Assembly (NCBI RefSeq): GCF_023634805.2 | Contig: NZ_CP106881.1 | Span: 1,829,501-1,893,500 of the forward strand | Reading direction: 5' to 3' | DNA length: 64,000 bases | From: Comamonas endophytica | Lineage (GTDB): Bacteria; Pseudomonadota; Gammaproteobacteria; Burkholderiales; Burkholderiaceae_C | In this document: positions 1,081 to 10,873 of the stretch, piece by piece | Numbering within the stretch: position 1 is the stretch's first letter | Layout of the letters: every line of letters starts with the position of its first letter | The notes under the pieces: model-generated | What the model saw: only the letters and a program-made list of their open reading frames with translations | The model's database searches: none | Told to the model about the DNA's origin: nothing | Position numbers and translations under genes: made by a program

Positions 1081-4000
1081 ATGAAAAAGCGCGTCGCAAT
1101 CATAGGTCTTTCCTTTAGATTCCCCAGTACGAATACCGACCAATACTGGACAGACCTGCTCGATGGGCGCGATCTGGTGACAGAGGTCGAGTCCTCGCGA
1201 TGGGCCAAGGACGGCTTTCTCCATCCAGACAAGAACCATCCCGGCAGCAGCTACACGTTTGCCGCCGGCTCCGTGGGCGACGTCTCGCTGTTCGACGCCG
1301 GCTTCTTCGGCATCTCGCCGCGCGAAGCGGCGCTGATGGATCCGCAGCAGCGCCTGCTGCTGGAGATGAGCTGGGAAGCGCTCGAGAACGCGGGCATCAA
1401 GCCCTCGACGCTGCGCGGCAGCCAGTGCGGCGTTTTCATCGGCATCGCCAGCGCCGACTATGCCTACCGCCTGTCGGAGGATCTGTCCGCCATCGACTCC
1501 TCGGTGGCCACCGGCAACACCGCCAGCATTGCCGCCAACCGCATCTCCTACGTGCTCGACCTGCAGGGTCCGAGCATGGCCATCGATACCGCCTGCTCTT
1601 CGTCGATGGTGGCCTTCCACCAGGCCTGCCGCTCGATCGTCTCGGGTGAAACCACCCAGGCGCTGGCCGGCGGGGTCAGCCTGCATCTGCACCCCTATGG
1701 CTTCATCACCTTCTCGAAGGCCACGATGCTGTCCAAGCGCGGGCGCTGCAACGTGTTCGACGCCGCGGGCGACGGCTATGTGCGCTCGGAAGGCGGCGGC
1801 ATGTTCGTGCTCAAGGACTACGACCAGGCGGTGGCCGATGGCGACCGGATCCTGGCCGTGGTCGCCAACACCGCGGTCAACACCGATGGCCGCAAGACCG
1901 GCCTCACGGTGCCCAGCCCCAAGGTCCAGTCGGCGCTGCTGAACAAGGCGTACAGCGAGGCCGGCATCGACCCCGCGGACATCGACTACGTCGAGGCGCA
2001 CGGCACCGGCACGGCGGTGGGCGACCCGATCGAAGCGCGCGCCATCGGCGATGCGCTGGGCAAGCGCCGCTCCAGGGACAACCCGCTGCTCATCGGCTCG
2101 GTGAAGAGCAACATGGGTCACCTCGAGGCCGCGTCGGGCGTCGCCGGCCTGGTCAAGGCGCTTTACGCCATCCAGCACCGCGTGGTGCCGGCGACCATCG
2201 GCATCAAGACGCTGAACCCGAAGATCGAGTTCGACGACTGGAACATCCAGGTGGCGACCGAGCCGCGGCAGCTCAAGAAGTCCGGCAAGCTCATCGTCGG
2301 CATCAACTCCTTCGGCTTTGGCGGCGCCAATGCCCACGTCATCCTGGAAAGCCACGAGCCGGCCGCGATCGACGCGCAGGGCGGTGCCCAGGCGGCCGTG
2401 CCTGCGGCCGCACCTTTCATCCTCTCCGCCAAGGATCCCGCGGCGCTGAAGGACGCGGCGCGCGCGTTTGCCGACTTCGTGCAGGACCAGCCGGCCGCGG
2501 CGCTCTACGACATCGCCTACAGCGCGGCCTTCCGGCGCGAGCGCCACGAACAATGCGCCGTGGTCGAAGGCGCCACCGGCGCGGCCGTCGCACAGGCGCT
2601 GCGCGCATTTGCCGAGGATTCCTCGACCGCCAAGGGCGTGGAATCCGGCACGGCGCTGGCAAAGCCGCTGGGCCCGGTGTTCGTCTACTCGGGCAATGGC
2701 TCGCAGTGGGCCGGCATGGGCAAGCGCCTGCTGGAAGAGTCGGCGGTGTTCAAGGCCGCGGTGCAGCAGGTCGACGCCATCTTCCAGCGCTATTCGCCGG
2801 ACTCGCTCGAAGCCGAGCTCGCGGGCCGCAATGGCGAAGACCGCTACGAGTTCACCGAGGTCGCGCAGCCGGCGCTGTTCGCGCTGCAGGTGGGCGTGAC
2901 GCAGATGCTGCGCCAGCGCGGCGTCATGCCCGTGGCCGTGGCCGGCCACAGCGTGGGCGAGGTGGCGGCGGCCTGGGCTTCCGGCGCCTTGACGCTGGAA
3001 GCGGCGGTCGAGGTGATCTACCAGCGCAGCCGCCTGCAGGGCACGACCAAGGGCAAGGGCGAGATGACCGCCGTCGGCCTGGGCCACGGCGCGGCCGAGA
3101 GCATCCTGGCGGAGCTGGGGCTCACGCCCGGCCTGGTCATTGCCGGCATGAACAGCTCGCGCGGCGTGACCATCGCCGGCGATCCGGCGCTGCTGACGCA
3201 AATGGAAACCGCATTGACCGAGCGCGGCGTCTTCAACCGCCGCCTGGCGCTGGACTATGCCTTCCACAGCCCGGCCATGGACGAGATCGAGGCGGGCGTG
3301 CGCGTCACGCTGGCGGGTCTCCAGCCGGGCGCGGCCAGCGTGCCCTTCTATTCCACCGTGACCGGCGGCCTGCTGGACGGCACGGCGCTGGGCGCCGAGT
3401 ACTGGTGGCACAACATCCGCCAGCCGGTGCGCTTCGAGCAGGCCATGATGCAGATCATGGCCGACGGCACGAACGTGTTCGTCGAGGTCGGCCCGCACGC
3501 GGTGCTGCGCAGCTACATCAACGACTGCCTCAAGGACCAGGGCACCGAAGGCCGGGTCATTCCCACCCTCGCGCGTGGCGACGACGCGGCGCAGCGCGTC
3601 TGGAGCGCCTGCAGCCAGGTGCTGATCGCGGGCGCCGGCATCGACTGGCAGCAGCTGTTCCCCACCACCGGCAATTTCGTCCAGCTGCCGTACTACCCCT
3701 GGCAGCGCGAGCGCCACTGGCACCCGGTCACGGCGCAGTCGCTGGGGCTGCTCGACCGCCAGAAGGTCCATCCGCTGCTGGGCTACGCGCTGCAGCAGCA
3801 GGCCCTGACCTGGGAGAACCAGCTCGACCCCCGCCTCAACCCGATGCTGGCCGACCACGTGGTCGGCGACACCACCATCTTCCCGGGCACCGGCTTCGGC
3901 GAGCTGGCGCTGGCCGCGGCGCTGCAGTGGCAGCCCGGCACGCTGGCCGAGGTCGAGGAGCTGGAGATCCGCGCGCCGCTGCTGCTGAACGAAGGCAGCG

Positions 4001-10031: not shown

Positions 10032-10873
10032 TGGCAAGGGGCCTGGCGCTGGTGCTGTCGCAGTTGTGGGGGCTGCTGCGCCAGCCGGCGCCCGCGAGCA
10101 CGCAGCAGCCCTATCCGAAGCTGCGCAATTTCATCCTCGACGTCATGGCCGAGGGCCGGCGCAAGAACACCATCAACCTGCTGTTCGAAGCCGAGGTTGC
10201 GCCCATGCGGCGGCACCTCGCGGCGCAGGCCGAACGCATCTCGCTGACCAGCTACATCGCCCGGACCCTGGCCTGCGCGGTCAATGAGAACCGCTCGATG
10301 CATGCCTATAGGCGCGGCAGATCCAGGCTGACGGTCTTCGAGGACATCGACCTGACCTTCATGGTCGAGCGCGATATCGGCGGCGGCGCGGCGCTGCCGC
10401 TGAACTACATCGTGCGCGCCGCCCAGCGCAAGGCTGCGTCCGGGATCCATGCCGAACTCCAGGCCGCGAAGACGGCGCCGCTGGGGCAGGGCGGGCCGCT
10501 GACGGCGCTGGAGAAGCGCTTCTTCGGGCTGCCGCGGCCGCTGCGCCGCATCGTCTGGTTCTTCATCCGCCGCGACCCGGTCATGTTCAAGGACCTGGTG
10601 GGCACGGTGGGCATCACCTCGATGGGCATGCATGCGCAGGGCGCGGCGATCGTCCTGCCCATCACGCCAATGACGCTCACGCTGTCGATAGGCTCGATCG
10701 CCAAGCGGCTGGTGCTGGAGAACGGCCAGCCCGTGGAGCGCGAATTCATCCAGCTGAACCTGGGCGCCGACCACGACATCATCGACGGCGCCCCGCTGAT
10801 GCGCTTTTGCACGCGCTTCAAGGCCATGCTCGAGGCCGGCTGCGCGCTCGAGCCGCCGCACCGGCACGGGTAG
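10031..10873 (+). CDS. Stand-alone CAT-fold acyltransferase, 2-oxoacid dehydrogenase E2 catalytic-domain type
   Basis: A 280-residue protein whose C-terminal half matches the catalytic domain of E2 acyltransferases and chloramphenicol acetyltransferase. The active-site motif HDIIDG (His248, Asp252, Gly253) is intact. There is no lipoyl or peripheral-subunit-binding domain, so it is not part of a dehydrogenase complex. It is the third gene of the PKS operon, with a 1-nt TGATG overlap. It may acylate the amine or hydroxyl of the aminoketone made by the first two enzymes, which would give an N- or O-acylated product. The fold assignment is firm; the substrate is inferred from position. Confidence 0.8.
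   Translation: MARGLALVLSQLWGLLRQPAPASTQQPYPKLRNFILDVMAEGRRKNTINLLFEAEVAPMRRHLAAQAERISLTSYIARTLACAVNENRSMHAYRRGRSRLTVFEDIDLTFMVERDIGGGAALPLNYIVRAAQRKAASGIHAELQAAKTAPLGQGGPLTALEKRFFGLPRPLRRIVWFFIRRDPVMFKDLVGTVGITSMGMHAQGAAIVLPITPMTLTLSIGSIAKRLVLENGQPVEREFIQLNLGADHDIIDGAPLMRFCTRFKAMLEAGCALEPPHRHG

What the first reader, a model, noticed from the sequence alone, without database searches (positions are those of the whole stretch)
1081..10873. PKS, alpha-oxoamine synthase and CAT-fold acyltransferase operon: candidate pathway to acylated aminoketone lipids
Seen: three genes joined by 1-base TGATG overlaps. The PKS has no thioesterase and no reductive release domain. The second gene is an intact PLP oxoamine synthase, a family that takes acyl thioesters and releases CO2 and an aminoketone. 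The third has an intact HxxxDG acyltransferase site but no lipoyl domain. Inference: the PKS chain is off-loaded by condensation with an amino acid, then acylated, giving a sphingoid-like or acyl-aminoketone product. I do not recognise this exact trio as a characterised bacterial pathway.
Basis: partly seen in the sequence, partly recalled or inferred. Interest (0 to 1): 0.85.

Follow-up and report, generated by a model that had tools for sequence, protein, structure and literature searches.

The report
PKS sphingolipid module beside capsule genes
Three joined bacterial genes look like the part of a capsule locus that builds a sphingosine-like lipid, a known type of pathway here carrying one extra acyl-transferring enzyme, and the lipid may be what holds the capsule sugar to the cell.

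Summary
Observation confirmed: PKS 1081-8682, alpha-oxoamine synthase (AOS) 8682-10031 and CAT/E2-fold acyltransferase 10031-10873, joined by TGATG overlaps. (1) PKS+AOS is a characterised pair: PfSgaAB of Pseudomonas fluorescens MYb115 makes C24-C28 sphinganines and SgaB prefers serine (PMC12134224); the window AOS is 70% identical to a Pseudomonas protein whose C-terminus fits the published sgaB primer. (2) The trio abuts an ABC-exported capsule locus on the other strand, as in rkp/wcb capsule-lipid gene sets. Capsule genes lie near 25 of 40 related AOS genes and in 0 of 20 control stretches. The third gene is the variation: in 9 of 9 loci seen with a close relative it directly follows PKS-AOS, and its AOS partners form one group on the tree. 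Best reading: PKS chain + serine -> 3-ketosphinganine -> sphinganine, acylated by gene 3, given phosphoglycerol, used as capsule lipid anchor. The first steps rest on close homology; acylation and anchor role are inferred. New variant of a known kind.

The parts
1081..8682 (+). Mono-modular highly reducing type I PKS, KS-AT-DH-(no-Pfam region)-ER-KR-ACP, SgaA/WcbR/RkpA type
   Evidence: (53% to the Pseudomonas pL21564-1 PKS)
8682..10031 (+). alpha-Oxoamine synthase, SgaB type (serine palmitoyltransferase-like); its N-terminal part is about 50 residues longer than that of SPT chain 8guh
10031..10873 (+). Free-standing CAT/E2-fold acyltransferase without lipoyl domain; third gene confined to one AOS group among the loci seen
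10987..11676 (+). TerC-family membrane protein, between the two halves here and in G031 (same genus); not between them in Collimonas; probably unrelated
11912..13435 (-). LTA synthase / phosphoglycerol-transferase-like sulfatase-fold membrane protein (candidate head-group enzyme)
13440..14285 (-). SDR, candidate 3-ketosphinganine reductase (SgaC-like)
   Evidence: 61% to the SDR of pL21564-1
14201..15394 (-). KpsS-like capsule glycosyltransferase (PF05159)
15427..16476 (-). Second PF05159 capsule protein
16457..17650 (-). GT4-type glycosyltransferase, also beside the capsule genes in Collimonas
17663..19060 (-). Outer-membrane polysaccharide export protein (OPX)
18894..31985 (-). Polysaccharide genes: glycosyltransferases, sugar epimerase/dehydratase relatives, phosphomannomutase, GDP-mannose dehydratase, a DUF4214 protein and a 614-aa protein without Pfam match
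31985..32710 (-). ABC exporter ATPase; KpsT role by position (best NCBIfam relatives TagH and Wzt)
32638..33507 (-). Capsule ABC exporter permease (KpsM-like)
33456..34610 (-). KpsE-family inner-membrane export protein (385 bits to TIGR01010, curated cut-off 437.5)
34746..36260 (-). ManC-type mannose-1-phosphate guanylyltransferase

Best explanation
The trio is the lipid-making module of an ABC-exported capsule locus of the rkp/wcb/sga type. The PKS works iteratively with malonyl-CoA and builds a long saturated chain on its own ACP (inferred from intact domains and the characterised SgaA). The AOS takes the chain from the ACP by decarboxylative condensation with L-serine, which releases the PKS and gives 3-ketosphinganine (shown for SgaB with acyl-CoA and serine; transfer from the ACP inferred). 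The SDR at 13440 reduces it to sphinganine (proposed for SgaC, inferred here). The third gene then transfers a second acyl chain to the base, most likely to the amine, giving a dihydroceramide-like two-chain lipid (inferred, weak). The LTA-synthase-like protein adds phosphoglycerol (inferred; lipids read as PG-sphinganines are seen in MYb115). The result resembles phosphatidylglycerol and serves as acceptor for the KpsS-like protein and as lipid anchor of the capsule exported by the KpsMTE-like proteins and OPX (inferred from neighbourhood). My separate odds: sphingoid base 0.75; capsule anchor 0.5; amine acylation by gene 3 0.35. The confidence below is for the sphingoid base made for the capsule.
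For: Window PKS 53%, AOS 68%, SDR 61%, LTA-like 51%, KpsS 50% identical to one Pseudomonas plasmid locus with these genes together. AOS 70% to P0280, one of 2 of the 240 AOS proteins listed that end LAKIG as the published sgaB primer implies; the tree puts window and Pseudomonas AOS in one 18-row set, 97/97. SgaB prefers serine, C24-C28 sphinganines, lipids 154 Da heavier read as PG-sphingolipids. KpsS/C, OPX or KpsE within about 10 kb of 25 of 40 AOS loci, in 0 of 20 control stretches, p 8e-7. Strong KpsE (199 bits or more) in 20 of 25 AOS+ and 16 of 374 AOS- genomes. rkp-1 described as making and modifying a lipid carrier for capsule secretion (passage, PMC4881576). Gene 3: directly after PKS-AOS in 9 of 9 distinct loci seen with a close relative; in 4 of 25 AOS+ and 0 of 374 AOS- genomes of the order sample; one gain on the AOS tree (94/89); site invariant in 23 of 23 proteins chosen for alignment from 120 listed.
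Against: 15 of 40 AOS loci show no KpsS/C, OPX or KpsE at the cut-offs used in the stretch fetched, among them G194, which carries gene 3 (some stretches are cut by contig ends, and in G194 export genes lie farther off, L087). Five of 25 AOS+ genomes lack a strong KpsE. No two-domain KpsC and only one KdsA found in the genome, so no classical poly-Kdo linker. The S. meliloti poly-Kdo capsule is said in a title to have a phospholipid anchor (Fraysse 2005, seen in a reference list). The window SDR is only 27% identical to the S. meliloti SDR. LTA-synthase relatives act outside the membrane, capsule priming inside (recalled), so a flip would be needed. Peters et al. do not mention a capsule. No direct evidence for what gene 3 acylates; L063 has a FemAB/GNAT-like gene beside gene 3.
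Confidence: 0.5

Rival explanations
1. The sphingoid lipid is a free membrane or secreted lipid (as studied for MYb115 in its host), and the capsule genes are neighbours without a shared product.
For: MYb115 contains free sphinganines and PG-sphingolipids; the amounts of sphinganines 1-3 and PG-sphingolipid 4 track host protection. 15 of 40 AOS loci show no KpsS/C, OPX or KpsE in the stretch.
Against: Neighbourhood 25 of 40 against 0 of 20, and the KpsE association across genomes. rkp-1 mutants are called KPS-deficient in a review passage.
Confidence: 0.25
2. Gene 3 is an O-acyltransferase, for example on the C1/C3 hydroxyl or the head group, comparable to PapA5 taking chains from an iterative PKS (PapA5 recalled).
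Against: No hydroxyl acceptor is identified; phosphoglycerol is expected on C1.
Confidence: 0.25
3. Gene 3 acts on the PKS itself, loading a starter or moving chains between ACP and AOS, and adds no second chain.
For: Directly after PKS-AOS in 9 of 9 loci seen with a close relative, 1-base overlap in the window.
Against: Relatives of the PKS-AOS pair occur without it: 21 of 25 AOS+ genomes of the order sample lack it.
Confidence: 0.15
4. The AOS uses glycine or alanine and yields 1-deoxy bases or plain aminoketones, as the first reader left open.
For: Amino-acid choice cannot be read from sequence alone.
Against: SgaB prefers serine almost exclusively over alanine and glycine; the window AOS is 70% identical to a Pseudomonas protein of the SgaB kind; an SDR close to the Pseudomonas one is present.
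Confidence: 0.1

Closest known systems
PfSgaABC sphingolipid cluster, Pseudomonas fluorescens MYb115 (PMC12134224)
   Same: Single-module reducing PKS, AOS of SPT type, SDR. The Pseudomonas plasmid pL21564-1 locus has four genes between AOS and SDR, as the MYb115 tags RS19800 and RS19775 would allow (inference from tag spacing).
   Different: Window has gene 3 and TerC between the halves; no match in the window to the plasmid's GNAT or phytanoyl dioxygenase at tblastn E 1e-8; the paper's main text holds no 'capsul' or 'polysaccharide'.
Sinorhizobium rkp-1 / Burkholderia wcb capsule-lipid genes (RkpA/WcbR PKS)
   Same: PKS, AOS, SDR, sulfatase-fold protein, KpsS-like protein in one stretch (L021); identities 38-42% PKS, 46% AOS, 30% sulfatase-fold, 39% KpsS.
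   Different: SDR only 27%; no gene 3 match in L021; in Caballeronia and Paraburkholderia an LpxC-like gene lies between PKS and AOS.
E2 acyltransferases and chloramphenicol acetyltransferase
   Different: No lipoyl domain matched; helices 159-190 before the conserved GTVGITSMGM stretch.
Fungal sphinganine-analogue clusters (fumonisin, sphingofungin)
   Same: Reducing PKS released by an AOS (recalled; PMC12134224 names these clusters; PDB relative 'Aminoacyl transferase sphA').
   Different: AOS match to sphA is weaker (E 5.8e-27 against 4.8e-62 for SPT 8guh); no capsule context (recalled).

Membership tests
SgaAB-type PKS sphingolipid cluster | Single-module reducing PKS with ACP, no thioesterase | tested here: met
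SgaAB-type PKS sphingolipid cluster | Adjacent AOS close to SgaB | tested here: met
   70% to P0280 (C-terminus fits the sgaB primer; the MYb115 protein itself was not available), one tree set 97/97
SgaAB-type PKS sphingolipid cluster | SDR of KDSR type in the cluster | tested here: inconclusive
   SDR at 13440, 61% to the Pseudomonas plasmid SDR; KDSR kinship and activity not tested
SgaAB-type PKS sphingolipid cluster | Serine condensation and sphinganine products | not testable with these tools
   needs enzyme assay and LC-MS
rkp-1/wcb capsule-lipid module | PKS, AOS, SDR, sulfatase-fold protein and KpsS-like protein together | tested here: met
   SDR only 27%, and TerC splits the window set
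rkp-1/wcb capsule-lipid module | Required for capsule production or export | not testable with these tools
   needs deletion mutants
Group 2 ABC-exported capsule locus | KpsM, KpsT, KpsE and OPX export genes | tested here: met
   Pfam cut-offs passed for OPX, permease and ATPase; NCBIfam scores below the curated cut-offs, and the ATPase's best NCBIfam relatives are TagH and Wzt
Group 2 ABC-exported capsule locus | KpsS plus two-domain KpsC for a poly-Kdo linker | tested here: not met
   PF05159 found in the genome only at the two window genes of 397 and 349 aa; a single KdsA match. So not filed as a classical poly-Kdo group 2 locus
E2 subunit of a 2-oxoacid dehydrogenase | Lipoyl and subunit-binding domains | tested here: not met
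   280 aa, only PF00198 matched
CAT/E2-fold acyltransferase superfamily | Fold and HxxxDG active site | tested here: met
Caulobacter-type sphingolipid operon | SPT gene preceded by a stand-alone ACP gene | tested here: not met
   the AOS is preceded by a PKS that ends in its own ACP; definition from passages of PMC9386255
Caulobacter-type sphingolipid operon | Co-occurring acyl-CoA/ACP synthetase gene | not tested
   the genome was not searched for it; feature from the abstract as listed

The most novel reading that the evidence does not exclude
A bacterial capsule is anchored by a sphingolipid that an iterative PKS makes for the purpose: PKS chain plus serine, reduced, N-acylated by a CAT/E2-fold enzyme that would be a new, unrelated kind of ceramide synthase, given phosphoglycerol so that it mimics phosphatidylglycerol, and handed to KpsS-like priming. 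The sga, rkp-1 and wcb gene sets would then be one lipid-anchor system.
Probability: 0.22. Interest if true: 0.85.

Novelty: new variant of a known kind. Interest (0 to 1): 0.58.

Why it matters
The lipid made by rkp-1/wcb-type genes is called a carrier or a fatty acid component, without a structure, in the passages I read, while the SgaAB work gives a structure and a host effect without a use in the cell envelope. Seeing both as one gene set makes each question testable with the other's tools: look for a sphingoid base on capsule, and for capsule loss in sga mutants. The group-bound third gene is a concrete candidate for a new lipid acyltransferase.

Tried and rejected
Rejected: chance or artefact ORFs. 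Rejected: gene 3 as PDH/OGDH E2 (no lipoyl domain). Considered and not claimed: mutual exclusion of gene 3 with GNAT or LpxC-like genes. L018 has a GNAT, L019 an LpxC-like gene, L020 and L077 both, but L063 has gene 3 and a FemAB/GNAT-like gene, and several gene-3-negative loci (L062, L064, L065, L067) match neither reference. Considered: TerC as part of the pathway; in Collimonas it is not between the halves. L031, a 26% relative in a Spirochaetales MAG, has no match to PKS or AOS in its 20.8 kb and gave no clue. The sponge swf PKS family was considered and set aside: its operon as described has no AOS and its authors separate it from RkpA/WcbR (passages). Promoter scan of 700-14500 found no sigma-70-type site (0, shuffles 0.8). 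The genome-contig scan used two stringent patterns: 57 stretches matched, 8 loci encode a relative. The 434 gene 3 relatives were not examined for context. The KpsE cut of 199 bits was chosen after seeing the gap down to 69 bits; at E 0.001 the family matches 153 of 399 genomes and at its curated cut-off 6 of 399. Genomes are related, so the Fisher values overstate independence. At E 0.001 gene 3 matched 22 of 61 relatives, but 20 of these are partial matches of 27-36% identity at its C-terminal part, read as ordinary E2 proteins.
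Full report
1. What is there. The three genes are as described: PKS 1081-8682, AOS 8682-10031, third gene 10031-10873, each junction a TGATG with one shared base. The PKS has KS, AT, DH, ER, KR and ACP and no thioesterase or reductive-release family. The usual motifs are intact: KS DTACSSS/HGTGT/NMGHLE, AT GHSVGE with YAFHS, DH HxxxGxxxxP and DxxxQ, ER GGVG, KR GGLGGFG with its S and Y, ACP GLDSLMG (meaning recalled). 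YAFHS suggests malonyl-CoA (recalled rule). Residues about 1180-1700 match no Pfam family; by inference a dead methyltransferase region, so an unbranched saturated chain is expected.

2. The AOS. Its best solved relatives by sequence are bacterial AOS enzymes and serine palmitoyltransferases; the PLP lysine, the stacking histidine and the aspartate align with those of SPT chains 8guh and 3a2b (roles recalled). In the plasmid collection the best relative is on Pseudomonas sp. TMW 2.1634 plasmid pL21564-1, 68% over the full length. Peters et al. 2025 (PMC12134224: abstract, sections 7, 8 and 15 read, passages elsewhere) show that in P. fluorescens MYb115 SgaA (iterative PKS) and SgaB (AOS) are both needed for C24-C28 sphinganines, that purified SgaB condenses acyl-CoA with L-serine with virtually exclusive preference over alanine and glycine, and that lipids 154 Da heavier are most likely phosphoglycerol sphingolipids; an SDR, SgaC, is proposed as reductase. 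The published sgaB reverse primer implies a C-terminus ending LAKIG; 2 of the 240 AOS proteins listed end so (P0280, P0305), and P0280 is 70% identical to the window AOS. Each of those two searches listed 120 of 7998 matches. The MYb115 protein itself was not in reach.

3. The surroundings. On the other strand lies an ABC-exported capsule locus: a sulfatase-fold membrane protein 11912-13435 whose nearest solved relatives by sequence are lipoteichoic acid primase and the phosphoglycerol transferase GacH, an SDR 13440-14285, KpsS-like 14201-15394, a second PF05159 protein, glycosyltransferases, OPX 17663-19060, GDP-mannose genes, an exporter ATPase, KpsM and KpsE relatives 31985-34610, ManC. The LTA-like, SDR and KpsS-like proteins are 51%, 61% and 50% identical to those beside the Pseudomonas plasmid PKS-AOS. 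There are four genes between AOS and SDR on that plasmid (phytanoyl dioxygenase, a capsule protein, GNAT, LTA-like), and the MYb115 locus tags of sgaB (RS19800) and sgaC (RS19775) leave room for four; I infer, but could not read, that the sga locus has the same layout. In Collimonas sp. OK307 the trio and the LTA-SDR-KpsS-PF05159-GT-OPX block stand directly tail to tail (L024); in the window genus TerC lies between (window and G031).

4. The older relatives. The same set (PKS, AOS, SDR, sulfatase-fold, KpsS-like) is found in Sinorhizobium meliloti (L021), which by its composition I take to be rkp-1 (inference; the record gives no gene names), in Shinella beside capsule export genes, and in Caballeronia and Paraburkholderia with an LpxC-like gene added. 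A review passage says rkp-1 products make and modify a specific lipid carrier for capsule secretion (PMC4881576); others place the PKS WcbR/RkpA in wcb/rkp capsule clusters (PMC3908369) and call wcbR a fatty acid synthesis component of a Burkholderia capsule (PMC7858667). The gene-by-gene names RkpG-J and WcbP-T are recalled. Peters et al. report 6,101 SgaAB-like clusters, 'dominantly distributed' in Burkholderia (passage); I infer that many of these are wcb capsule genes. Their main text holds no 'capsul' or 'polysaccharide', and that of a 2025 review on capsule attachment no 'sphing' or 'polyketide' (PMC12220298).

5. Statistics. Of 399 genomes of the order, 25 have the AOS at E 1e-120 or better and 4 have gene 3 at E 1e-20 or better, all 4 among the 25 (only a limited number of first-look candidates per genome was scored, so misses are possible). 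In the phylum sample 17 of 398 genomes have the AOS; gene 3 was not searched genome-wide there, but none of the 16 loci fetched shows it. A PKS lies beside the AOS in 21 of the 24 order loci other than the window and in 16 of 16 phylum loci; KpsS/C, OPX or KpsE in 17 of 24 and 8 of 16, against 0 of 20 control stretches of 19.9 kb taken at other places (some 45-200 kb away) in 19 of the same genomes (AOS stretches 4.2-19.9 kb). Of the 15 without, 4 have an LTA-like gene; several stretches are cut by contig ends; one of the 15 is G194, a gene 3 carrier whose OPX match is cut by the stretch end and whose other export genes lie in the next stretch (L060, L087). Three loci without PKS (L081-L083) belong to AOS genes outside the main 49-row set of the tree. 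A strong KpsE (199 bits or more, next lower 69) is in 20 of 25 AOS+ and 16 of 374 AOS- genomes. In the window's own genus close relatives of gene 3 are in 2 of 37 genomes searched, the window's included, so the locus is accessory.

7. Mechanism. Shown elsewhere: PKS and AOS needed for sphinganine, SgaB serine preference. Inferred here by kinship: the same for the window. Inferred from position: SDR as reductase, LTA-like protein as phosphoglycerol transferase. Inferred only: second acyl chain by gene 3 and use as capsule anchor. The idea fits the known group 2 pathway, where KpsS and KpsC build on phosphatidylglycerol (PMC11041684 passage). Against: no two-domain KpsC and one KdsA found in the genome, so any linker differs; the S. 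meliloti poly-Kdo capsule is described in a title as having a phospholipid anchor, which a phosphoglycerol sphinganine might or might not satisfy; and the membrane side of an LTA-type enzyme is opposite to that of capsule priming (recalled).

8. Verdict. Real, well conserved, and mostly of a known kind; the third gene makes it a new variant. The link between PKS sphingolipids and capsule anchoring is the part worth testing; I found no paper stating it in searches of a library that lacks most subscription journals.

Noticed in passing
L018 7497-30251 (Pseudomonas sp. TMW 2.1634 plasmid pL21564-1): PKS, AOS, SDR, LTA-like and capsule genes with KpsF, KdsA and KdsB lie together on a plasmid typed as mobilizable, so the lipid-capsule package may move between strains.
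   Followed up: partly
window 24082-33507: Low-GC stretch (39-53% in 2-kb steps against 60-70% around it) holding glycosyltransferases, a DUF4214 protein, a 614-aa protein without any Pfam match and exporter genes; probably variable, imported polysaccharide genes.
   Followed up: no
L019 14048-14974, L020 10890-11804, L077 8369-9280: An LpxC-like deacetylase sits between PKS and AOS in Caballeronia, Paraburkholderia and G319; its substrate in this pathway is unclear.
   Followed up: partly
L063 12185-13324 and 13470-14510: In G404 gene 3 is followed by a FemAB/GNAT-like protein and an epimerase-family SDR, a different set of accessory genes.
   Followed up: partly
L022 3611-11209 and L023 8311-13134: In Planktothrix and Streptomyces plasmids the AOS is fused to a PKS in one protein; no capsule gene is annotated in the stretches fetched.
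   Followed up: no
window 10987-11676: TerC gene wedged between the two halves of the locus; among the loci mapped only the window and G031 of the same genus match it.
   Followed up: partly
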